DNA of 64,000 nucleotides from Branchiostoma floridae. Its lineage: Eukaryota > Chordata > Leptocardii > Amphioxiformes > Branchiostomatidae. The translations under genes and the position numbers were made by a program. The notes beneath the pieces were generated by a model, which did no database searches, was not told the origin of the DNA, and saw only the letters and a program-made list of their open reading frames with translations. This document shows, piece by piece, positions 636 to 33,156 of the stretch. The DNA is taken from NCBI RefSeq assembly GCF_000003815.2, contig NC_049987.1:4179963-4243962 (forward strand), read 5' to 3'. How positions within the stretch are numbered: position 1 is the stretch's first letter; each line of letters starts with the position of its first letter.

Positions 636-16475
<15,840 letters not shown>

Positions 16476-18343: not shown

Positions 18344-20182
18344 CTAACTACTCAACCTCTGTTCCATCTGTTCCTCAAGCTCAAAGTAGAAAATTGCTTT
18401 TGAGTAATCACCAAGGTCTCTACAGGCAGTGCACAGATTGTTAAGTACAACTGCAATGTTAGGATGTGCAGTGTTCTCACCATAGATAGGCTGCATCATC
18501 TGTAGTGACTGTTCATAATATATGATTGCCTTTCTATGATCACCAAGGTTCCTCCAGGCACCACCCAAGTTGTTAAGTGTGTTTGCTATGCCAGGATGTG
18601 CAGTGTCCTCACCATAGATAATCCTGTTCATCTGTAGTGATTGTTCATAGTAGCTAATGGCCTTTCTGTGATCACCGAGGTTCCTCCAGGCGACACCCAA
18701 GTTGTTAAGTGAGTCTGCAATGTCAGGATGTTCAGTATCCTCACCATAGGTAATCCTCTTCATCTGTAGTGATTGTTCATAGTAGCTAATGGCCTTTCTG
18801 TGATCACCGAGGTTCCTCCAGGCGACACCCAAGTTGTTAAGTGAGTCTGCAATGTCAGGATGTTCAGTATCCTCACCATAGATAATCCTCTTCATCTGTA
18901 GTGATTGTTCATAGTAGCTGATGGCCTTTCTGTTATCACCAAGGTAATTCCAGGCACCACCCAAGTTGTTAAGTGTGTTTGCAATGTCAGGATGTGTAGT
19001 ATCCTCACCATAGATAATCCTCTTCATCTGTAGTGATTGTTCATAGTAGCTGATAGCCTTTCTGTGATCACCAAGGTTACTCCAGGCGACACCCAAATTG
19101 TTAAGTGAGTCTGCAATGTCAGGATGTGCAGTGTCCTCACCATAGATAATCCTGTTCATCTGTAGTGATTCTTCATAGTAGCTGATGGCCTTTCTGCGAT
19201 CACCAAGGGTCCTCCAGGCACTACCCAAGTTGTTAAGTGACTTTGCAATGTCAGGATGTGCAGTGTTCTCACCATAGATAATCCGCCTCCTCTGTAGTGA
19301 TTGTTCATAGTAGCTGATGGCCTTCCTGTGATCACCAAGGTAACTCCAGGCGGCACCCAAGTTGTTAAGTGAGTCTGCAATGTCAGGATGTGCAGTATCC
19401 TCACCATAGATAATCCTGTTCATCTTTAGTGATTGTTCATAGTAGTTGATGGCCTTTCTGTGATCACCAAGGTGACTCCAGACGGCACCCAAGTTGTTAA
19501 GTGAGTCTGCAAAGGCAGGATGTGCAGTATCCTCACCATAGATAATCCTCTTCATCTGTAGTGATTGTTCATAGTAGCTGATGGCCTTTCTGTGATCACC
19601 AAGGGTCCTGTGGGCGACACCCAAGTTGCTAAGTGAGTTTGCAATGGCAGGATGTGCAGTGTTCTCACCATAGATAATCCTGTTCATCTGTAGTGATTGT
19701 TCATAGTAGCTGATGGCCTTTCTGTGATCACCAAGGTAACTCCAGGCACCACCCAAGTTGTTAAGTGAGTCTGCAATGTCAGGATGTGCAGTGTTCTCAC
19801 CATAGATAATCCGCCTCATCTGTAGTGATTGTTCATAGTAGCTGATGGCCTTTCTGTGATCACCAAGGTCCGTCCAGGCATTACCCAAGTTGTTAAGTGA
19901 GTCTGCAATGTTAGGACGTGCTGTGTTATCACCATAGATAATCCTCTTCATCTGTAGTGACTGTTCATAGAAGCTGATGGCCTTTCTGTGATCACCAAGG
20001 TCACTCCAGGCGGCACCCAGGTTATTCATTAAATCTGCAATGGCAGGATGTGCAGTGCCCTCCCCATAGATATGGTGCACTGTCTGCAGTGACTGCTCAA
20101 AATAACTAACAGCCTTTCTATGATCACCAAGTTTCACCCAAGTGTAACCTAAGGCAGAGAGTGCATTGGCTACATCAATGTG
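18344..20182 (-). repeat. 132-bp coding tandem repeat (TPR array, copy 2)
   Basis: Thirteen full 44-codon units plus a partial, against seven plus a partial in copy 1. First and last units correspond between copies, so about six units were gained or lost internally. Codes for [16 protein letters not shown]-type helices like kinesin-light-chain or nephrocystin-type TPRs. Confidence 0.9.
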
Positions 20183-23100
20183 TGGGGTGTTTTCACCATA
20201 TGTTGATATTTTATTCCGAAGTGTTTCTTCTTTGCACGTCACAGAACTTTGGTAATCACATAGACTTTCGTACACCTCTGCTTTCAGTTCTGAAGAGTTG
20301 TCAAACAAAATGGTCTGATTTTTCTGTGACTGGCTATTGCTCAGTTGTGAGATGACTTTCTTTAATGGCCTTGCCGTGTAATAGTATCTCATGAGCTGCT
20401 GTCTATTTGAGAAGTAAAATACTTTCTTCAGTTTTGCCCCAATGTCAGTATCTCTCGCTATTGATGATAAGGCTGACATGTTTTCCACCTGACCATGATT
20501 GTTCATGTATGTCCGCAGCCTCATTTCTGCTGAGATACTGACCATCACCATCAAGTGATGTGCGTTCTCAGCATTGACGACCCCGCCGTTTTTAAGCTCC
20601 TGAATAGTCTCCCAGATTGTGGTCGGTTGTATGTTATGAAGTAGCGCCCAACACGACACTGCAAGGCTTGAAAAACGATACACTTCTTTCTTTACGTTCA
20701 ACAGACTTGCACTTAGACCTTTGATTTGAAATGTTGGCACATTCTCATTAAGTATAGTGTTTGCCATTACCAATTTGAAAGGAATTGTCCCCTTATTTAC
20801 TTGAAGTTGCTGAGTACAAAGAGACATGTGGTCATCGACCAAGCCCTGTTCTCCTGTGATCAAAGACACATTTCCCAGGATACTAGCAAGGTGGTAGCCT
20901 TTCTTCGAATGGAACGTTATGTCGTCTTTAAGCACCTTGGTCATATTGCTTGGTGTGTGGATAAGTCCTGTGCTGTTACTACCCCTGCCCAGTGGAGTCT
21001 TACATGCATGTGGCATGGCTCCATCAAACGAAAACCCACGTGGTGTAACAGAGTCATAGTACCAGCTGTCTAATGGGTCCCCTGAGAAGAAATTATTTAG
21101 AGACTTAATCCCCATGGCTGGGAGAATGGTTTCTCCCAGATTGATCACTTTGAGGTGCAGATAATGTGTGAGGTTGCGGAAATACTTAGCATTATGTTCT
21201 GTTTCCCCCTCTATCAAAATAGCAAATTCCAGATCAGAGTACGGAGTTACCAACCCTGTGGCTTGTGAACCCAGGCCTATCATGGCATACTTACAGGGAG
21301 GGGGGCCCATAATCTCTATACATTCATCTACAAGCCCAGCTATGAATGTTTTTCTTTGATGAACAATAGTCTCAAACAGTATCTTGATTGCTTCCACTCT
21401 CTTCTTCTCCACTTCTCTTAACTTAGGGTCATCTTCATCAAGGCTGTACGGATCTATTTCCTCATCGATCCTTTTCATTTCTCTCTCCGCACAGTCACGA
21501 TCCTCTTTCAACATCAATTTATGTTTCTCTGTATCATCGATGTGTCCCTTTTGTTCAATATCCAGCACATGCTTAACAAATGATTGGGTTATGGCCTGGA
21601 TTGCTTTCTCGATGTCTTCTCTTTTCGATCTTACCAGTGCTGCATTACAGAGTGCAGCAGCCTTGGTGAAATCACCTCCGTCTTTTGACTGGATTCCTCT
21701 CTTGAGATAGACTTCGCCCAACCTGACAGGGGCTCTGCCTCTGTATTATGTTGACCTGAAACAAAAGATAAAGAAAAATTTTTAATTGGACTCTGACTTG
21801 TCTTCGTCTGTTCGACAAACCTAAAAAAAATTCCACATAAAAATTTAGATGATTTTTTATGCGTCCCTTCACGCACACTTGTGGCATCGTTGAATGTAAC
21901 AGTAACAGTTATTACCTTTGCTTTCCTCCAGATACATATACTTGAGGCACAGGTACAATGGTTAAAGTTTTGAGTATCACTTCTTATTGCATTGCAACTT
22001 TTGTTTGAAATGCCTGGATGGCATAGCCTGGGTACCACCCAAAAAGTAGTTCGCTCCGGCGTTCATTATATACTATATACAGTCGCTTCTAGGTCTGACA
22101 TTCATTATACACTATATACAGTCGCTTCTCTGTGTTTCTGTCTGGGAACGCTGACCATCTTAACGTCATGGAATCGTCCAAATTTTGGCGCTGATTGGTC
22201 CCCACATATTCATTAGCAAATTATGGAATGGGTTCAAGCGCTCGTTCGAACCAGTGTTCCAATACCAGAAAAGCCCCCGTCCCCTTGCACATGCGGGCGC
22301 TGGCCTGTTGTCATCGTCGAAAGTCGGAAGTGCTCTAGAACCCATTCCCTGCTTCGCTCATTAACTGACGTTAGCACCAAACAGTTTGAATGTGCATGCC
22401 TGCAGACGGATAGCAGAAGCAAACAAAGGAGCGAACTACTATCCGGATGGTACCAAGGCTATGGATGGCAGTGATAGAGGCGAGAAATATTTAGAGGCCA
22501 TATCCATACTGTATACAAAGTGCTGTTCATCAATGCAATTTTTTTCAAAGATCTCGCAATTTCTATAGATTAAAAATCATTACACTCTTTGGACTAACGT
22601 TATGTCTACAGAATACAACACGGGGTATTCTGTATCGCCCAATGTACTTGTATGGCCCGACTGCAGGTAGGATTGCCCGAAGGCCGGAGGGCGATCCGAC
22701 CCACGGGAGGGCTGGGACTGAGGGCGATACGGAATACCCTGTGTTGTATTTTATTTATATGTCAAGTACCCAAGAAAACCTAAGTTATTTGCAAAAAAGA
22801 TGTGACATAAACTGCACATGGCGTCAACAACTTCGTCAATTCAAACAAATGAATTGGGCAAAGGAACAAAACAGTTGTTCGAATTTTCGACAATTGTGCA
22901 ATTAAGCGAGTCGAGTCGTTCAAATTGAACTATGGAGCCCCGAACCGTACTGTAAAATATAGATCAGTCGGAGCACCGATATGGAACATACTGTAGATAT
23001 ATACTGGGTATGATATAAAAATACTTACCTTTGACATGAACAGACTTGAGTGCAGCTGCAAAGCTTTTTTCTGCTCTGTCTAGGTCCCCTGTCTGTAGGG

Positions 23101-26100
23101 CCTTGGAACCTTCCTGCAGATGGTCTTCATATGTTCTATGTTTATAAGAAGAATATCATAATTAATATGCATTTTGAAAATCTATTTCAAAATGTATTTT
23201 CTTGGTGATACTTTTAAATCAGCTATCAATATTACAATAAAACAGAATACTGTAACATAAAATTGCTAAAAATGCAAAGAAATTGATATTTCAGATTTCA
23301 ACTTTGCTTATTGTTGTAAATGTATATTATATTAGATGTACTGTTACTGTATTTGATTATATGTAACTAACCTCAAACTTTCATCATCTCCCAGTGGTGT
23401 GATATCTGTGACTTTACTCTCTTCTGAAGCATCACTATTATTTAATGTCTTTCAATAGTTTTGAACACCAATTTTGTTTGCTGCCTCCATTAAACTGTGC
23501 AAAACATGCAAAAGATAGAGATCAACGTAGTCAATTTTGAAGCTAAGTCAGGGCTCTAGCCAGCGTCTGTTTTTCTGTTAATTGACGGAAATTTGCTGCG
23601 TGTGACGGAAAAATTTTAAAACCAAACCTTGACGGACAAAAATCCTTGGTGGAAGCTACAGGCGGCTTGGGGACGCCGTCCACGGCCGTAAAAGCCACAC
23701 ATGCACTGTTTGTTTTGCTATTGTTATTATTGTTGACGAAGTGTGTCGGCGCCCTTTTGCATACAATAATCTCATTTAAAAAAACGTTTTTCAAGGTCTC
23801 AGTTCAGTCTCTGTAACTCCTGGAATAGTATCTTCGTGACAATGGGAATTGGCTGACAGAAAAAAAATTTCGAGCTGGCTAGAGCCCTGAGCTAAGTGTA
23901 AGGTATCTCCACCTTTGTATGTCTGGATGGAGTTGAACATCCTGAGTAACATCAGGCTTTCTGATGTTCCCAAACTGGTGTCCGGCGGTGGGTCGTCTTT
24001 CTCTCGAGCTCATTTTTGATCCTTTTGATGTTGAGTGCTGCAAGATAATTATTTTGATTCACAATTGTCAGCAATTTTTATGCCTTGCACTCCACTACAA
24101 CGTGTATACTTTATGTTATTAATATATATAGAAAATACATGTATGTTAATCTTTTGGTAAGTCATGCTCTTTTTTTGCATTAATTCTACACTTATTGTAT
24201 GCTGTATACCAGATCTTTACACATTTGATGAGTGAGGCACACACAGCCTTAACACAGCAGGAAAATCTCCTGGCCAATGGGTCTAATTATAAATAACATT
24301 TTTGTGGCAGTAGTGTACACTGGTCTTGGTCTTCTCTAAATCCTTGCACAATCATAGATTGGCTGATGGCTTATCCAATGTTACGGTAAATTTTCAGGAA
24401 AAAAACTTAAGATATCCTTGAGATAGCATTACGCTCATACACTCTCAGAGTGTATCATTTTGACATGTGATTATGACAACTACTATATATTGTAACTAAT
24501 CTATCTCACCATAGTAGTATAGTAGGGACAGGATGAGTCCCATTATTCTGGCGGTGCAAGGTGGTGCAGGTCAAAGGTCATCGCCTGCCGATATTATTTA
24601 TTCAGGTATAGCAGGTCAGAGGTCAAATATGATTTATTCAGGCGGCGCAAGTGTAAGGTCAGATATTATGTATTCAGGCGGAGCAGGTCATAGGTCACAT
24701 ATTATTTATTCAGGCGGAGCAAGTGAAAGGTCAGATATTATTTATTCAGGCGGAGCAAGTGAAAGGTCAGATATTATTTATTCAGGTAGAGCAGGTCAGG
24801 GGTCGGTCAGATATTATGTATTCAGGCGGAGCAAGGTAACTATGACAACCCCACCCCACCCCAAATGAACCTCCCCCTCTCCAATCGTGAATGACATACC
24901 CTTATTTGGCCTGGTTCTAAGTCTCTGTGGTATAAAATAAAGATGACAATGACCGTTTGATTTTTTCCGTTCTTTTATTCTCTACTTTTAAAAGTCAGCA
25001 TCCAACGTGAACTTTTGCTGTTCAGAGGAGGACATCACGCCCATCTTCTGGTACTCCCCCACCCTCTTCTCAAAGAAGTTGGTCTTTCCCTCCAGAGAAA
25101 TGTTCTCCATGAAGTCAAAGGGGTTCTCGCTGTTGTAAAGCTTACTGCACATGAGTTCCCCCAGCAGCCTATCTGCGACAAATTCGATGTACTGTTTCAT
25201 CAGGTCTTGATTAATCCCAATCAGCCTCACGGGAAGAGCTTCCGTCAGGAACTCTTGCTCAATCTTAACAGCATCGTCGATAATCTGGTGAATGCGCTCC
25301 TCACTAGGCTTATTGATCAGATAGCTGACCATAAGACAGGCAAAGTCGGCGTGCAGACCCTCGTCTCTACTGATCAGCTCATTAGAGAAAGTCAGCCCCG
25401 GCATGAGCCCTCTTTTCCTCAACCAGAAAATTGCTGCGAAGGCCCCGGAGAAAAATATCCCTTCCACAGCGGCAAACGCAACCACACGATCCCCAAAAGT
25501 GCTTTTCTCGTCTCCACTCCATCTAAGGGCCCAGTCAGCCTTCTTCTTTACACAAGGTATGGTCTCAATGGCACTGAACAGATGCTCTCTCTCATGCGGA
25601 TCCTTCACGTAGGTGTCGATTAAGAGACTGTACATTTCAGAATGAATGTTCTCAATGGCAATCTGGAAGCCATAGAAGCACCTTACCTCAGTCACCTGCA
25701 CCTCTTTGGTGAATCTCTCTACCAGATTTTCATTCACGATACCGTCACTAGCTGCAAAAAACGCCAGGACGTGTTTGATAAAGTGTTTTTCGTTGTCATT
25801 CAGACTCTCCCAATTCTCCAAGTCCTTAGAGAGATCAACTTCCTCCGTTGTCCAGAATGATGCTACGGCCTTCTTGTACATGTGCCAGATGTCGCGGTAT
25901 TGGATGGGAAAAATGACGAAGCGTCTGGAGTTTTCACGCAGTAGGGGCTCACACTGCATCTCTCGGTCTACAGAGACCTTCAGTGCGGACTCGTTAGGCT
26001 TCGGTGGCTGCGCTGGAAGCATCATGCGGCGGTTCTGTTAGCAAAAAAAGGAAGACCTTTTATCTGGTCTGTCACCATGTATTTGCATATTTACATTTGC

Positions 26101-29100
26101 TTCAGACGAGTCGGTACTCTGATTGGTCCAGATATACAGAGTTTAGGGGGGATACGTAATTTCTTAGCTCAAGTCGGGGTGAAACAAAGGTCAGCCTGAA
26201 GGGGTCGCATAATCCGGGCGGCTTCATCGTTATATGTCACATACTAATGAACCTATTTGAACGTAAAGGTAAGTATCACGTGTGAACATATGCCATGCAC
26301 ATACATGCATTGAATCATTGCTTTGGAGTCGCTATACGTCTTGCTCCGGAGTAGCTCCGGAGTAGGTATTGCGATAGGTATTGTGTTGTTCTGAATTATT
26401 CTTTTGTCGGTAGCGTTATGATTATCCTTTTTATCTGCATCCCTTCTAGTTCATATCCCTGCGGTATCATCGAGTGCATATTTCCACCGACCGTTGGTTG
26501 CTTCTCACGGCATAAACAATGCCTATTTTACGTCTTTTGTTTCAATTCGGGAACCGTCTTTGATCGTGGTCTGGTCTTAAGGGTGGTCGCGGCGTTTATC
26601 TTTCTGAGAACGGCACTGATTGATGACTTACCGTCTTTCCCACCAACTCTGTTATGATATCACCATGGTTACACGTACACATCCCTATGGGGGTACCAAC
26701 TCATCAGTTGTTGAAAGGGCCGAACAGATCTATTCCCACGCCGAAAACAATGCCCTGATAATTGTGCCTTCTTTCCCACCAACTCTGTTATGATATCACC
26801 ATGGTTACACGTACACATCCCTACGGGGGTACCAACTCATCAGTTGCTGAAAGGGCCGACAATGAATATAAGATCTGTTCCCACGCCGAAAACAATACCC
26901 TCATAATTGTGCCTTTTGTCTTCGTGCTTCGTCCCAGACGCCGTGCATATTTTCCGGGATGTGGGGGAAACCCCTGACACCACCTATTGTTCTAGATCTC
27001 TATAAAACTCTAAGAGCCAGGGCGAAATTTAGTTGACCATCGGCGTGGGAACTGCGAGGACGTCTCGGCTCTACTGATATCTCTCTTCTGCGCCGGCCAC
27101 CTCCGCAAGCTGGACAGCCATCGCCCGGTAAGTCTGTCATCATGTTTTCTTTAAGTCTTTCCTCTTGCAACCATAGACCGAAAGAGGCTAACAGTCTTTA
27201 GGCCGATACATGCTTTGAGGGTTGTGTTGTTGTTTGTATATTGACCAAAGAGCTCGATTAGGTGGACGCAACTTTGTTGGACGTATAGACTAGTATTGGA
27301 AAACGGCTTTTCTGTCCGTTGTTTTAACATGTCGCTTTAGTTTGGGGCACTGTCTCAAGAGAGAAGGACCCGGGGTTGTGAAGTTTTGTCCCTCTAACCA
27401 AAATTTATTGTTCGACCAAAGCAAGGAATGAAGAATCGCTCAAATAGACAAAAGTTGTTTGCAACCCGGGTAAAACTAGAATATATGTTACTGTATTTTC
27501 TCTGCATCAAAACGTGTTTTGAATCAAAACGTGTTTTGAAAAAAAAAAAAAAACTGTTGCAAAGGTTGTACCAGGTCATTTTTGTTTAGCTTTCGTGTGG
27601 AGTATCGTGTTATGTTTGACACTAGGGGATTCGTGTGAGAACGTTACGAAAACTCTTGCTGTTGTTGTTGTGTCATGTTTGTAGTAAATTTCTTTAAGTA
27701 AAAAAAATACGCCCTAGATTATGTGATACGCTTTATGTTATGTCGAATGCTACCTATGTCATTACCAACTTTGAAACGTAACAGTACGTGTGTCACAGTT
27801 TTGTACCGAAAGTTTTCGCCGCTACCAAAACAAGTATTCGACCGGCAAAAAAACGATTTTGTTCGTTTACAAAGAGCACCGAACCCCTTTCTTTGTCATG
27901 GAATACTGATGAGTGTGCGGTCGTCGTTCTAACAAAAGCACTGGAGTGTTGTACAAATTCAGCGTTTCAAACAAAGCTTTGTATGTTCTTTCAGAACCCA
28001 GCAATGATCAAGAGTACAGTCAACTAGTCATGGCGTTTACTTGTGAAACGTGCGGAAAAACCTTTGCCCAAAAACGTAGTCTCACCCGTCACCAAAAGTC
28101 CCACGACACCACGACCTACCTCTGCGAGATCTGCGACCGTCTAACCTATAAACCTATAACCGTCTCGACAGTTTTAAGCGTCATCAAAAGCAGCACGACC
28201 CGACCGCACCCACGCACGAGTGCGATTTTTGCGGCAAAAAGTTTTCTAGACGAGACAGCCTACTTCAACATCGGCGGCTGCACGAGAAACCCAGGCCGGC
28301 ACCCACGTTTTGGTGCCGACCGTGTAACGTGGCGTTTGACACGCNNNNNNNNNNNNNNNNNNNNNNNNNNNNNNNNNNNNNNNNNNNNNNNNNNNNNNNN
28401 NNNNNNNNNNNNNNNNNNNNNNNNNNNNNNNNNNNNNNNNNNNNCTCCTTCCGGATAAGAAGCTGCCCGCAGGGCCTAGTTTAATTCGGCCGATCGTTGG
28501 CCCAATCGCATAAACAATCCACATCAGCCATTTGCCCAATATGGTCACAGGGACGTTGAGCAACACGGGGCGTCTACTGCTAGTGCACGGAAAAGGGTTT
28601 CCTCCGCAGACGGGGCCGGGCCGTGTCAAACGCCACGTTACACGGTCGGCACCAAAACGTGGGTGCCGGCCTGGGTTTCTCGTGCAGCCGCCGATGTTGA
28701 AGTAGGCTGTCTCGTCTAGAAAACTTTTTGCCGCAAAAATCGCACTCGTGCGTGGGTGCGGTCGGGTCGTGCTGCTTTTGATGACGCTTAAAACTGTCGA
28801 GACGGTTATAGGTTTATAGGTTAGACGGTCGCAGATCTCGCAGAGGTAGGTCGTGGTGTCGTGGGACTTTTGGTGACGGGTGAGACTACGTTTTTGGGCA
28901 AAGGTTTTTCCGCACGTTTCACAAGTAAACGCCATGACTAGTTGACTGTACTCTTGATCATTGCTGGGTTCTGAAAGAACATACAAAGCTTTGTTTGAAA
29001 CGCTGAATTTGTACAACACTCCAGTGCTTTTGTTAGAACGACGACCGCACACTCATCAGTATTCCATGACAAAGAAAGGGGTTCGGTGCTCTTTGTAAAC

Positions 29101-32100
29101 GAACAAAATCGTTTTTTTGCCGGTCGAATACTTGTTTTGGTAGCGGCGAAAACTTTCGGTACAAAACTGTGACACACGTACTGTTACGTTTCAAAGTTGG
29201 TAATGACATAGGTAGCATTCGACATAACATAAAGCGTATCACATAATCTAGGGCGTATTTTTTTTACTTAAAGAAATTTACTACAAACATGACACAACAA
29301 CAACAGCAAGAGTTTTCGTAACGTTCTCACACGAATCCCCTAGTGTCAAACATAACACGATACTCCACACGAAAGCTAAACAAAAATGACCTGGTACAAC
29401 CTTTGCAACAGTTTTTTTTTTTTTTCAAAACACGTTTTGATTCAAAACACGTTTTGATGCAGAGAAAATACAGTAACATATATTCTAGTTTTACCCGGGT
29501 TGCAAACAACTTTTGTCTATTTGAGCGATTCTTCATTCCTTGCTTTGGTCGAACAATAAATTTTGGTTAGAGGGACAAAACTTCACAACCCCGGGTCCTT
29601 CTCTCTTGAGACAGTGCCCCAAACTAAAGCGACATGTTAAAACAACGGACAGAAAAGCCGTTTTCCAATACTAGTCTATACGTCCAACAAAGTTGCGTCC
29701 ACCTAATCGAGCTCTTTGGTCAATATACAAACAACAACACAACCCTCAAAGCATGTATCGGCCTAAAGACTGTTAGCCTCTTTCGGTCTATGGTTGCAAG
29801 AGGAAAGACTTAACGAAAACATGATGACAGACTTACCGGGCGATGGCTGTCCAGCTTGCGGAGGTGGCCGGCGCAGAAGAGAGATATCAGTAGAGCCGAG
29901 ACGTCCTCGCAGTTCCCACGCCGATGGTCAACTAAATTTCGCCCTGGCTCTTAGAGTTTTATAGAGATCTAGAACAATAGGTGGTGTCAGGGGTTTCCCC
30001 CACATCCCGGAAAATATGCACGGCGTCTGGGACGAAGCACGAAGACAAAAGGCACAATTATGAGGGTATTGTTTTCGGCGTGGGAACAGATCTTATATTC
30101 ATTGTCGGCCCTTTCAGCAACTGATGAGTTGGTACCCCCGTAGGGATGTGTACGTGTAACCATGGTGATATCATAACAGAGTTGGTGGGAAAGAAGGCAC
30201 AATTATCAGGGCATTGTTTTCGGCGTGGGAATAGATCTGTTCGGCCCTTTCAACAACTGATGAGTTGGTACCCCCATAGGGATGTGTACGTGTAACCATG
30301 GTGATATCATAACAGAGTTGGTGGGAAAGACGGTAAGTCATCAATCAGTGCCGTTCTCAGAAAGATAAACGCCGCGACCACCCTTAAGACCAGACCACGA
30401 TCAAAGACGGTTCCCGAATTGAAACAAAAGACGTAAAATAGGCATTGTTTATGCCGTGAGAAGCAACCAACGGTCGGTGGAAATATGCACTCGATGATAC
30501 CGCAGGGATATGAACTAGAAGGGATGCAGATAAAAAGGATAATCATAACGCTACCGACAAAAGAATAATTCAGAACAACACAATACCTATCGCAATACCT
30601 ACTCCGGAGCTACTCCGGAGCAAGACGTATAGCGACTCCAAAGCAATGATTCAATGCATGTATGTGCATGGCATATGTTCACACGTGATACTTACCTTTA
30701 CGTTCAAATAGGTTCATTAGTATGTGACATATAACGATGAAGCCGCCCGGATTATGCGACCCCTTCAGGCTGACCTTTGTTTCACCCCGACTTGAGCTAA
30801 GAAATTACGTATCCCCCCTAAACTCTGTATATCTGGACCAATCAGAGTACCGACTCGTCTGAAGCAAATGTAAATATGCAAATACATGGTGACAGACCAG
30901 ATAAAAGGTCTTCCTTTTTTTGCTAACAGAACCGCCGCATGATGCTTCCAGCGCAGCCACCGAAACCTAACGAGTCCGCACTGAAGGTCTCTGTAGACCG
31001 AGAGATGCAGTGTGAGCCCCTACTGCGTGAAAACTCCAGACGCTTCGTCATTTTTCCCATCCAATACCGCGACATCTGGCACATGTACAAGAAGGCCGTA
31101 GCATCATTCTGGACAACGGAGGAAGTTGATCTCTCTAAGGACTTGGAGAATTGGGAGAGTCTGAATGACAACGAAAAACACTTTATCAAACACGTCCTGG
31201 CGTTTTTTGCAGCTAGTGACGGTATCGTGAATGAAAATCTGGTAGAGAGATTCACCAAAGAGGTGCAGGTGACTGAGGTAAGGTGCTTCTATGGCTTCCA
31301 GATTGCCATTGAGAACATTCATTCTGAAATGTACAGTCTCTTAATCGACACCTACGTGAAGGATCCGCATGAGAGAGAGCATCTGTTCAGTGCCATTGAG
31401 ACCATACCTTGTGTAAAGAAGAAGGCTGACTGGGCCCTTAGATGGAGTGGAGACGAGAAAAGCACTTTTGGGGATCGTGTGGTTGCGTTTGCCGCTGTGG
31501 AAGGGATATTTTTCTCCGGGGCCTTCGCAGCAATTTTCTGGTTGAGGAAAAGAGGGCTCATGCCGGGGCTGACTTTCTCTAATGAGCTGATCAGTAGAGA
31601 CGAGGGTCTGCACGCCGACTTTGCCTGTCTTATGGTCAGCTATCTGATCAATAAGCCTAGTGAGGAGCGCATTCACCAGATTATCGACGATGCTGTTAAG
31701 ATTGAGCAAGAGTTCCTGACGGAAGCTCTTCCCGTGAGGCTGATTGGGATTAATCAAGACCTGATGAAACAGTACATCGAATTTGTCGCAGATAGGCTGC
31801 TGGGGGAACTCATGTGCAGTAAGCTTTACAACAGCGAGAACCCCTTTGACTTCATGGAGAACATTTCTCTGGAGGGAAAGACCAACTTCTTTGAGAAGAG
31901 GGTGGGGGAGTACCAGAAGATGGGCGTGATGTCCTCCTCTGAACAGCAAAAGTTCACGTTGGATGCTGACTTTTAAAAGTAGAGAATAAAAGAACGGAAA
32001 AAATCAAACGGTCATTGTCATCTTTATTTTATACCACAGAGACTTAGAACCAGGCCAAATAAGGGTATGTCATTCACGATTGGAGAGGGGGAGGTTCATT

Positions 32101-33156
32101 TGGGGTGGGGTGGGGTTGTCATAGTTACCTTGCTCCGCCTGAATACATAATATCTGACCGACCCCTGACCTGCTCTACCTGAATAAATAATATCTGACCT
32201 TTCACTTGCTCCGCCTGAATAAATAATATCTGACCTTTCACTTGCTCCGCCTGAATAAATAATATGTGACCTATGACCTGCTCCGCCTGAATACATAATA
32301 TCTGACCTTACACTTGCGCCACCTGAATAAATCATATTTGACCTCTGACCTGCTATACCTGAATAAATAATATCGGCAGGCGATGACCTTTGACCTGCAC
32401 CACCTTGCACCGCCAGAATAATGGGACTCATCCTGTCCCTACTATACTTCTCACCATTTTCACTGTTTCCCTGATCTTCTCTGAATAACTGACACGATGG
32501 TCCAGAGTCTGTCTTGTCCCGGAATCCTCACAACTTCTCAGGGCTTTCTTGTACATGGCAGCTGCCTTGGAGAACTGGGATACATCAGAGGTTTTCTTGC
32601 CTTTCTCAAGATAGAAATCTCCAAGAGATTTCAAAACCTCAACCTCCAAGAACATATCGCTATTTTCTATTGCGGTCAATAATGTTTCTGTGTAAGTCTC
32701 CTGAGTGGAATGCTGAGGTTTTTTGTTACTTCTTTCTAATTTGTCACAAACCTCTGCCACCCTTAAGACATTACTGTCAGCAGTACCCCAGTAGTCTGGT
32801 AACAACCACCGGAAGTGTGGAGTGTACCCCTGCAGCAGTTGTCTGGAGAGTTTCTCCATGTAGCCGATACGATGTTCCAGCGTTTGTCCCATGTCCGAAT
32901 CTTTGCAGCGCAGTAGGGCAGCGGCATACAGGGCAGCAGCCTTGTCAAACTCTGCTGAATCTTTACTGAGCTTGCCTTTCTGAAGATGCAGGTCTTCAAG
33001 ACTTTTCAAGACTTCTACCTCAATTAAGAGGTCCATACGAACAATGGCTTCTCTCAGTGCCCGCCCATAAATGACTACTTGTTCATGCTGACTCTTGAGG
33101 CCCAACTCCAGGTTCTGTAACTTGTCTGCCAGGCTGGTCATGTTGTTGTCACACAT
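18344..33156 (-). CDS. NTase-fold / TPR-array protein, copy 2 (one frameshift)
   Basis: Five coding exons on the minus strand: 32455-33156 (ATG at 33156), 23913-24037, 23372-23434, 23029-23135 and 18344-21755. Phases agree throughout. Exon 1 (234 codons, [14 protein letters not shown]) has two helical LGDFYLEKG...AAAMYKKAL repeats. Exon 4 has another such repeat. Exon 5 carries [20 protein letters not shown], a charged linker, the nucleotidyltransferase signature [20 protein letters not shown] (GS, then D-x-E), and 13 full 44-residue TPRs plus a partial one. One base is missing near 21725 (CTGTCAGG against CTGTACAGG in copy 1), so exons 1-4 are out of frame with the 1125-codon main frame. That frame could start at the ATG at 21721. 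Intron 1 is enlarged by the 7.9-kb palindrome. The function is unknown. NTase-TPR fusions suggest a sensor or effector role, which is inference only. Confidence 0.75.
21724..21730 (-). other. Frameshift site in copy 2 NTase-TPR gene
   Basis: Plus-strand CCTGACAGG here, CCTGTACAGG in copy 1 (about 3650). Copy 1 keeps the frame at this point ([13 protein letters not shown]). Confidence 0.8.
22024..22461. mobile_element. TIR element, TAGCCTGGGTACC family, 9-bp target duplication
   Basis: Starts TAGCCTGGGTACC, ends GGTACCAAGGCTA. TGGATGGCA is repeated at 22015-22023 and 22462-22470. The subterminal AGTAGTTCGCTCCGG is also inverted at the other end. Nine-base duplications suggest a MULE-like origin. 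Relatives are at 3924, 44939-45060 and 57601-58382. Confidence 0.85.
22612..22748. repeat. Short TIR repeat (TACAACA...GGGCGAT family)
   Basis: TACAACACGGGGTATTC at the left and GAATACCCTGTGTTGTA at the right are inverted, with CGCCC/GGGCGAT blocks inside. Related to bases 41-170 and 50067-50205. Confidence 0.65.
23548..23890. mobile_element. MITE with TCAGGGCTCTAGCCAGC ends, copy 2 only
   Basis: TCAGGGCTCTAGCCAGC and the inverted GCTGGCTAGAGCCCTGA bound a 343-base insert. GCTAAG is repeated on both sides (23542-23547, 23891-23896). It lies between exons 2 and 3 of the NTase-TPR gene. Confidence 0.85.
24504..24512. other. Target-site duplication, left (TCTCACCAT)
   Basis: Direct repeat of 32449-32457. 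It contains a second copy of the exon-1 splice donor of the NTase-TPR gene (minus strand ATG/GTGAG). Confidence 0.85.
24560..24840. repeat. Subterminal 36-bp repeats with DR1 motifs, left arm
   Basis: Units of about 36 bases read GGCGGAGCAAGTGAAAGGTC then AGATATTATTTATTCA. Perfect AGGTCA-N-AGGTCA direct repeats occur at 24568-24580, 24613-24625 and 24685-24697. The other units have AAGTGA-A-AGGTCA or close variants. Confidence 0.9.
24988..26025 (-). CDS. RRM2: Ribonucleotide reductase small subunit, left arm of palindrome
   Basis: Intact intronless 345-aa class I R2 (beta) subunit. It holds the diiron-tyrosyl radical used with the large subunit to reduce ribonucleotides to deoxyribonucleotides in the cytosol. 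All ligands are present: D94, E125, H128, E188, E222 and H225. The radical tyrosine is Y132 (ENIHSEMY). The C-terminal FTLDADF tail, which docks on the large subunit, is kept. It is highly similar to animal RRM2/RRM2B throughout, but the N-terminus is short and has no KEN box, so it resembles RRM2B in length. Start: ATG at 26025 (a second Met follows at once). An AATAAA signal follows the stop (mirror of 31985-31990). Lack of introns suggests a retrocopied or element-captured gene. The protein is identical to the right-arm copy. Confidence 0.95.
26026..26130 (-). promoter_or_regulatory. RNR2 promoter, left arm
   Basis: Read on the minus strand toward the gene: CCAAT (26122-26126), octamer ATGCAAAT (26081-26088), then AGATAAAAG (26057-26065) as a weak TATA-like element about 35 bases from the ATG. 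CCAAT plus octamer is common in S-phase promoters such as histone H2B, which is suggestive only. Confidence 0.5.
26634..26914. repeat. Direct repeat, period 136, in left arm
   Basis: TCTTTCCCACCAACTCTG starts at 26634 and again at 26770. The two units are nearly identical, including GGTTACACGTACACATCCCT and GCCGAAAACAAT. The pair is mirrored at about 30050-30330. It lies between the RNR2 and zinc-finger promoters. Confidence 0.85.
27001..27007 (+). promoter_or_regulatory. TATA box of left-arm zinc-finger gene
   Basis: TATAAAA about 30 bases before the likely start of a non-coding first exon that ends at a strong donor (27127/27128). Mirrored at 29957-29963. Confidence 0.6.
27030..28344 (+). 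pseudogene. C2H2 zinc-finger gene, left arm, frame-broken and running into the gap
   Basis: A 5' UTR exon of about 100 bases ends CGCCCG/GTAAGT at 27127. The intron runs to TTCTTTCAG at 27994. Exon 2 has an ATG at 28030 and starts [20 protein letters not shown], a complete C2H2 finger. Finger 2 begins CEICDR and resumes two frames away as [11 protein letters not shown]. Between them lies a 23-base block containing AACCTATAAACCTATAACC, which looks like the cause. A third finger ([21 protein letters not shown]) and the start of a fourth (CRPCNVAF) follow before the Ns. The linkers are not TGEKP-like. It could be a DNA-binding protein of the element. The same damage is in the other arm. Confidence 0.65.
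28345..28444. other. Assembly gap (100 Ns) at palindrome centre
   Basis: Exactly 100 Ns, probably a gap of unknown true size. Bases 28445-28621 to its right are not repeated on the left, so the loop is asymmetric or partly missing. Confidence 0.95.
28512..29935 (-). pseudogene. C2H2 zinc-finger gene, right arm, frame-broken
   Basis: Mirror of the left-arm gene: 5' UTR exon from about 29935 to 29837, intron to 28971, ATG at 28935. It has the same first finger, the same 23-base disruption in finger 2 and the same third finger. Past the arm end (28622) the restored frame continues only about a dozen codons into the unique centre before a stop near 28580, so the two arms end differently. The outer limits are approximate. 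Confidence 0.6.
30834..30938 (+). promoter_or_regulatory. RNR2 promoter, right arm
   Basis: Mirror of 26026-26130, with CCAAT (30838-30842), ATGCAAAT (30876-30883) and AGATAAAAG (30899-30907) upstream of the ATG at 30939. Confidence 0.5.
30939..31976 (+). CDS. RRM2: Ribonucleotide reductase small subunit, right arm of palindrome
   Basis: Mirror copy of 24988-26025 with the same 345 residues. The same six iron ligands (D94, E125, H128, E188, E222, H225), radical Y132 and C-terminal FTLDADF are present. It is transcribed outward, toward exon 1 of the NTase-TPR gene on the opposite strand. AATAAA at 31985-31990 lies only nine bases after the stop, then a T-rich stretch. No frame damage is seen, so the gene is either under selection or very recently copied. 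Whether either copy is expressed cannot be told from sequence. Confidence 0.95.
31985..31990 (+). terminator. Poly(A) signal of right-arm RNR2
   Basis: AATAAA just after the stop codon. It is mirrored at 24974-24979 for the left-arm gene. Confidence 0.6.
32124..32404. repeat. Subterminal 36-bp repeats with DR1 motifs, right arm
   Basis: Mirror image of 24560-24840. The perfect DR1 motifs are read as TGACCTnTGACCT on the plus strand. Confidence 0.9.
32449..32457. other. Target-site duplication, right (TCTCACCAT), overlapping exon 1 splice donor
   Basis: The exon/intron junction of exon 1 (32455/32454) lies inside this 9-mer. The donor still reads GTGAGA, followed by the element end. Confidence 0.85.

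What the first reader, a model, noticed from the sequence alone, without database searches (positions are those of the whole stretch)
24513..32448. A 7.9-kb palindromic element with a metabolic gene in each arm
Seen: two arms of about 3.8 kb in near-perfect inverted orientation, a 9-bp flanking direct repeat (TCTCACCAT), and an empty site in the paralogous copy near 7431-7440. Each arm carries RNR small subunit, zinc-finger gene and terminal repeats. Known: fold-back elements such as FB and Galileo have very long TIRs but are not known to me to carry ribonucleotide reductase. Inference: a fold-back transposon that captured RNR2, or whose biology uses it.
Basis: partly seen in the sequence, partly recalled or inferred. 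Interest (0 to 1): 0.92.

Follow-up and report, generated by a model that had tools for sequence, protein, structure and literature searches.

The report
Mirror-image derivative of a lancelet provirus
The 7.9-kb palindrome is a mirror-image piece of a virus-like Polinton element that is present in many copies in this animal (probably lancelet) genome and took an enzyme gene from its host; related mirror-image elements, several with a gene of their own, appear to live off the same element.

Summary
The palindrome is real: arms of 3,831 bp, 99.87% identical, an RNR small-subunit gene in each. The flanking duplication is 6 bp (CACCAT), not 9; an empty site exists at about 7429-7440. It is not an FB/Galileo-type transposon. 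Its tips give at least 58 matches in the 513-Mb genome. Five longer copies (15-24 kb) between the same tips together encode PolB, ATPase, adenovirus-type protease, chromo-integrase, PC4, Bcl-2 and, in three of them, RNR beside one tip: a Polinton/Maverick (adintovirus-like) provirus family. The RNR gene is intronless, closest to the host's own RRM2 among the sequences compared, and under purifying selection. The window element is the RNR end of that virus copied back on itself; the readable side of its centre fits a fold at a 6-bp inverted microhomology inside PolB. Nine further inverted-repeat elements have the same tips; six carry a zinc-finger gene not found in the five longer copies. Six have the RNR end of the virus, three the Bcl-2 end. 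Four, two of each, share one central loop, so a mirror core seems inherited while both ends change together. Copy-back during protein-primed replication and mobilisation in trans are inferred, not shown.

The parts
24507..24512 (.). target-site duplication CACCAT, left copy
   Evidence: empty site
24513..28343 (+). left arm: RNR end of the virus, tip to early PolB
24591..24840 (+). 36-bp iterons of the tip, holding AGGTCAnAGGTCA (DR1) sites
24988..26025 (-). ribonucleotide reductase small subunit, 345 aa, intronless, read towards the tip
26270..26400 (+). intergenic stretch holding one copy of the ~75-bp motif that forms arrays in the related mirror elements
27913..28343 (+). 5' fragment of the PolB gene (C2H2 fingers), frame broken once
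28344..28621 (.). spacer: 100 N (28345-28444), 28445-28585 mostly unexplained, then PolB sequence in the direction of the left arm up to the fold
28608..28625 (.). copy-back junction with inverted microhomology GGCCCG/CGGGCC
28622..32451 (-). right arm, reverse complement of the left
28619..29052 (-). 5' fragment of the PolB gene, right arm
30564..30694 (-). motif stretch, right arm
30939..31976 (+). ribonucleotide reductase small subunit, right arm, identical protein
32124..32373 (-). 36-bp iterons, right tip
32452..32457 (.). target-site duplication CACCAT, right copy
7429..7440 (.). empty site in the paralogous copy of the flank

Best explanation
The window element is an integrated, mirror-image defective genome of a Polinton/Maverick (adintovirus-like) virus family. 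Shown: it has the family's tips and a 6-bp target duplication, its arms are the RNR end of the virus, and the longer copies supply PolB, integrase and packaging genes. Inferred: while the linear genome was copied from one end by the virus's own polymerase, the growing strand reached early PolB, paired with itself at GGCCCG/CGGGCC about 84 nt apart, and copied its own sequence back to the tip. The product has two identical ends, each with the terminal origin and integrase site, so viral proteins acting in trans could copy and integrate it. RNR would serve the parent virus by supplying dNTPs outside S phase (inferred). Related mirror elements went further: several have their own zinc-finger gene and iteron arrays, keep a mirror core with a shared loop, and carry either the RNR or the Bcl-2 end of the virus on both sides. 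That both ends change together suggests that each genome passes through one self-complementary strand.
For: Tips: 58 matches (40 of 139 candidates scored) and 59 (40 of 151). 6-bp duplications exact in 13 of 15 elements read: 9 of 10 inverted-repeat elements, 4 of 5 longer copies. Genes of longer copies: rve 1.9e-12, Chromo 2.1e-11, PC4 2.3e-27, Bcl-2 1.1e-12, Pox_A32 2.1e-5; gene order. Arm collinear with longer copies. Fold junction and 6-bp microhomology; 43 of 147,376 position pairs tested in this PolB stretch reach 6 bp. Gapless inverted-repeat elements L054, L057, L058. Shared loop in L050, L052, L056, L057 with different ends. Matching end/core junctions on both arms in 6 of 9. RNR: 10 copies, no stops, dN/dS 0.04-0.17 in 45 pairs.
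Against: Only the right side of the window's fold can be read; the left lies in the 100-N gap, and 28445-28585 beside it is unexplained. L058 has different junctions on its two arms; L053 and L060 are cut by N. L054 has another centre. L050 and the C4 copy show no matching 6-bp duplication. RNR was not seen in 2 of 5 longer copies, one of them with 6.9 kb of N in one piece. PolB (23.9 bits, cut-off 25.8) and protease (20.6, cut-off 21.3) fall below Pfam's cut-offs; MCP has no Pfam or PDB match. Protein priming, mobilisation in trans and activity were not tested.
Confidence: 0.7

Rival explanations
1. An ordinary provirus integrated first, and its right half was later replaced by a copy of the left half through repair or gene conversion in the chromosome.
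For: Arms can be homogenised by conversion; the window's arms are 99.87% identical.
Against: It must keep the far tip and the 6-bp duplication in 9 of 10 inverted-repeat elements, and does not explain one loop shared by elements with different ends.
Confidence: 0.13
2. The elements are long inverted-repeat transposons of the host that recruited viral ends; mirror symmetry is simply their terminal repeats, with no copy-back step.
For: Six of nine related elements carry a zinc-finger gene not found in the longer copies read.
Against: No transposase found in them (ORFs listed for L054 and L057 only); tips and 6-bp duplications are those of the provirus. The window element has no such gene.
Confidence: 0.08
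3. Host use: the inverted repeats are kept because their transcripts fold into double-stranded RNA and silence the virus.
For: Inverted copies of viral RNR or Bcl-2 sequence in each element.
Against: RNR and most Bcl-2 frames stay open, and RNR is under purifying selection across copies. No RNA data seen.
Confidence: 0.05
4. Assembly artefact: a read turned back on itself.
For: A 100-N gap in the centre of the window element and of L052 and L060.
Against: Left and right host flanks differ and carry the 6-bp duplication and a paralogous empty site; L054, L057 and L058 have no N.
Confidence: 0.03
5. An FB/Galileo/Rehavkus-type fold-back transposon that captured RNR.
For: Long inverted arms and tandem repeats near the tips.
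Against: 6-bp duplications, not 9; the integrase in the longer copies is rve with chromodomain.
Confidence: 0.01

Closest known systems
Polinton/Maverick (polintoviruses) and Adintoviridae
   Same: Gene set of the longer copies: PolB, rve integrase with chromodomain, packaging ATPase, cysteine protease; inverted terminal repeats; 15-24 kb (gene set as in passages of PMC4028283, and PMC11071296). The 6-bp duplication as a Polinton mark is recalled.
   Different: RNR small subunit and Bcl-2 at the ends; I saw neither reported in the listings and passages of my searches. The window element lacks nearly all these genes.
Defective and incomplete genomes of adenoviruses
   Same: Polar derivatives that keep the origin-bearing end; incomplete particles hold left-end DNA (passages of PMC5033970). 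Palindromic defective genomes of protein-primed replicons are recalled, not looked up.
   Different: Here the derivatives are integrated in a germ-line genome, occur many times, and some have their own gene.
Fold-back transposons (FB, Galileo) and Rehavkus
   Same: Very long inverted arms; tandem repeats near the ends.
   Different: 6-bp duplication and a viral integrase in the longer copies. Rehavkus: 9 bp and a PHD finger (table passage of PMC6446971).
Virophages and other satellite viruses
   Same: Inferred dependence on another virus's proteins, with a gene of its own.
   Different: No capsid or polymerase gene of its own seen; shares the helper's tips.

Membership tests
Polinton/Maverick | rve-family integrase | tested here: met
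   PF00665 1.9e-12 and Chromo 2.1e-11 in L042; present in longer copies, not in the window element
[quoted passage not shown]
   PF03175 2.3e-5, 23.9 bits under the 25.8 cut-off; protein priming not tested
Polinton/Maverick | genome-packaging ATPase | tested here: met
   PF04665 Pox_A32 24.6 bits over 22.8
Polinton/Maverick | adenovirus-type cysteine protease | tested here: inconclusive
   PF00770 20.6 bits under 21.3; African swine fever virus S273R chain 1.2e-6
Polinton/Maverick | double jelly-roll major capsid protein and penton | tested here: inconclusive
   no Pfam or PDB sequence match; naming is recalled; no fold made
Polinton/Maverick | terminal inverted repeats with 6-bp target duplication (recalled) | tested here: met
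   13 of 15 elements (C4 end re-read)
[quoted passage not shown]
   definition from passages of PMC11071296; no reference proteins at hand
FB/Galileo fold-back transposons | own P- or MULE-type transposase | tested here: not met
   none among the Pfam matches of the ORFs scanned; ORFs under the size cut-offs were not scanned
Rehavkus | 9-bp target duplication | tested here: not met
   6 bp
Satellite virus | dependence on a helper | not testable with these tools
   inferred from missing replication and capsid genes

The most novel reading that the evidence does not exclude
A heritable class of mirror-image satellites: genomes that are one self-complementary strand read twice, keep a common central loop and their own zinc-finger gene with iteron arrays, exchange both ends at once for either end of the helper Polinton virus, and integrate with the helper's machinery. 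The window palindrome would be a fresh first step of such a genome, formed by copy-back from the virus itself.
Probability: 0.45. Interest if true: 0.86.

Novelty: new variant of a known kind. Interest (0 to 1): 0.74.

Why it matters
Polintons are thought to be both transposons and viruses, but how they replicate in animals is hardly known. Mirror genomes with a readable fold point are a fossil record of strand switching during linear replication, and can be read in any lancelet genome. A virus of an animal that carries its host's RRM2 and a Bcl-2 gene would be set up for non-dividing cells. If the mirror elements are satellites, an animal provirus has parasites of its own, with a genome form (one strand, folded and read twice) that would explain why the two ends always match.

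Tried and rejected
Rehavkus/MULE was my first idea, from the 9-bp duplication and the tip minisatellite; dropped when the duplications proved to be 6 bp and the longer copies proved to encode an rve-chromo integrase. A viral origin of RNR from giant viruses: IMG/VR relatives (36 loci; 5 taken into the tree, 3 of them compared pairwise in print) are 63-71% identical, the host gene 86-88%. An Rfam family in four mirror elements: none at gathering scores. Relatives of the ATPase, MCP and PolB in IMG/VR: none confirmed. A structure prediction was not asked for, since the tool's text names other sources than these loci.

Unanswered: the search for Bcl-2 genes in the genome (all busy) and for PC4, so the Bcl-2-end elements are known only from loci found by their tips. 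Paper PMC1450207 is not held.

Literature: ten searches. I saw listings with titles and abstract starts, and passages of PMC6446971, PMC11071296, PMC4028283, PMC12220804 and PMC5033970; PMC11071308 held none of six terms. None of what I saw reports RNR in an animal Polinton or mirror-shaped Polinton derivatives; most subscription journals are not in the library.

Full report
What is there. The window element runs from 24513 to 32451 (7,939 bp). Its arms align over 3,831 bp with 4 mismatches and 1 gap. Each arm has, from the tip inwards: 36-bp repeats, an uninterrupted RNR small-subunit gene of 345 aa read towards the tip, about 1.9 kb of intergenic DNA, and about 140 residues of the start of a PolB gene with C2H2 fingers, broken in frame at the same place in both arms. 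The spacer of 278 positions holds 100 N. The flanks share CACCAT, six bases, on either side, and joining the flanks matches a paralogous stretch at 7169-7783 with 88.7% identity over 628 columns.

What it comes from. The first 200 bases match 58 places in the 513,431,437-base genome, with 40 of 139 candidates scored; a second tip gave 59 matches, 40 of 151 scored. Both counts are lower bounds. I take the species to be a lancelet, probably Branchiostoma floridae, from recall of the assembly size; no call confirms it. Five longer copies were read in pieces: C2:3827921-3843025, C12:5266444-5282028, C14:20813632-20830277, C12:19841177-19865099 and one at C4:27381981. Pfam (ten ORFs): rve 1.9e-12 and Chromo 2.1e-11 in one ORF, PC4 2.3e-27, Bcl-2 1.1e-12, Pox_A32 2.1e-5, DNA_pol_B_2 2.3e-5 (below cut-off), Peptidase_C5 3.9e-4 (just below cut-off). 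The protease also matches the African swine fever virus protease S273R at 1.2e-6 and the Bcl-2 protein Mcl-1 at 1.9e-7. The presumed MCP and penton have no Pfam match and the MCP no PDB match; I name them by recall. The order in the C4 copy is tip, Bcl-2, PC4, integrase, penton, MCP, protease, then ATPase, PolB and RNR, tip. RNR is present in 3 of the 5 copies; it was not seen in C12:5266444 or C14:20813632, and the latter has Bcl-2 matches beside both tips and a piece with 6,865 N. The presumed MCP gives 22 matches in the genome, 18 of them at 92-100% identity. This gene set is that of Polintons and adintoviruses (passages of PMC4028283, and PMC11071296).

The RNR gene. Of 61 Pfam matches to RNR in the genome, six exon pieces at C2:25894937-25896881 form a gene with introns, the host RRM2. 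The viral gene is intronless. Four viral copies compared in print are 85.6-87.8% identical to the host exons, 77-79% to mouse R2, 78% to human p53R2 and 63-71% to three IMG/VR contigs; the tree separates the viral copies from the rest with 100% support. Only two vertebrate proteins and no other invertebrate were included. Ten copies have no stop, and dN/dS is 0.04-0.17 in all 45 pairs. The residues that correspond to the iron ligands and radical tyrosine of mouse R2 (recalled) are in place, and no KEN motif is present; in RRM2 that motif marks the protein for destruction outside S phase (recalled). The gene thus looks like a host RRM2 copy kept by the virus for making dNTPs (inference).

How the palindrome arose. 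Read on the minus strand from the right arm, the sequence follows the parental PolB gene to GACACGGCCCG and then turns into the reverse complement of parental sequence further on in PolB. GGCCCG and CGGGCC, about 84 nt apart in the parent, pair at the turn. In that PolB stretch, 43 of 147,376 position pairs tested reach six matching bases. The left side of the loop is lost in the N gap, and 28445-28585 is mostly unexplained. I infer that a growing strand folded on itself and copied back to the tip. The result has two origin-bearing ends and was integrated with its own target duplication.

Other mirror elements. Nine more inverted-repeat elements with these tips were read: L050, L052-L058, L060. 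Arm identity ranges from 81% (L050) to 99.9% (L060); L054, L057 and L058 have no N. Exact 6-bp duplications flank 8 of these 9, the exception being L050, and 4 of the 5 longer copies, the exception being C4. Arms of six (L052, L053, L054, L057, L058, L060) are the RNR end, those of three (L050, L055, L056) the Bcl-2 end. The Bcl-2 frame is open in 5 of 6 arms and in two pieces in the sixth. RNR is cut short in all six RNR-end elements; stops occur in L057 (both arms, one each) and L053 (left arm). Inside the ends lie arrays of a ~75-bp motif and of 20-bp repeats with TGCTCCGGAGTA. Six of the nine (L050, L052, L053, L054, L056, L057) carry a zinc-finger and acidic protein of up to 234 aa; it was not found in the other three, two of which hold N, nor in the five longer copies or the window. 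Its gene gives 108 matches in the genome, 150 of 172 candidates scored, in 70 loci; 16 hold a divergent pair, 1 a convergent pair, and 53 only one direction. None of the 19 match clusters with MCP contains it. dN/dS is 0.21-0.79 in the 26 comparisons between elements; the two arms of L057 differ by 9 non-synonymous and 2 synonymous changes, as in decay.

Inherited mirror core, exchanged ends. The asymmetric centre of L057 is found in L052 (97%), L056 (96%) and L050 (97% over 102 bases plus a second piece), although L057 and L052 have RNR ends and L056 and L050 have Bcl-2 ends. The junction between viral end and core is the same on both arms in 6 of 9 (L052, L054, L055, L056, L057; L050 within about 21 bp), different in L058, and cut by N in L053 and L060. 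L054 has another centre, as after a second fold. The simplest reading is that each genome passes through one self-complementary strand, so that a change at one end is copied to the other. This is inference from anatomy; neither protein priming nor mobilisation in trans was shown.

Ends. Each of 29 tips examined has AGGTCAnAGGTCA-type direct repeats with a one-base spacer: 103 sites, on one strand only, none at spacers 0 or 2-8, against a mean of 0.025 (highest 2) in 200 shuffles. The tips are related, so this is not 29 independent cases. Such repeats are bound by nuclear receptors of the RXR/HNF4 kind (recalled). Host factors at the tip may help transcription or initiation, as NFI and Oct-1 do in adenovirus (recalled).

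Verdict. The finding is real and more interesting than its first reading, but of another kind: a copy-back derivative of a Polinton-type provirus, in a genome that also holds what look like mirror-image satellites of it.

Noticed in passing
24591-24840 and 32124-32373, and 29 tips in loci: AGGTCAnAGGTCA (DR1) direct repeats in every tip examined, on one strand, no other spacing 0-8.
   Followed up: partly
G000:C6:25541115-25547027: Two MCP matches facing each other 3 kb apart, in the order expected of a large palindrome of the Bcl-2 end; not fetched.
   Followed up: no
L043/L044 (G000:C14:20813632-20830277): Bcl-2 matches beside both tips of a longer copy, as if the ends of a whole virus had been exchanged too.
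   Followed up: no
L039:1484-1957: A second PC4-like stretch (45% identity) between tip and Bcl-2 in the C2 copy.
   Followed up: no
L056:912-1001 and 5962-6051: A second tip sequence lies 89 bases inside the outer tip, mirrored on both arms.
   Followed up: no
window 1064-2947, 18344-21721, 7363-8019, 32428-33156: Duplicated tetratricopeptide-repeat genes in the flanks; the element sits near the end of one copy's ORF (32428-33156).
   Followed up: partly
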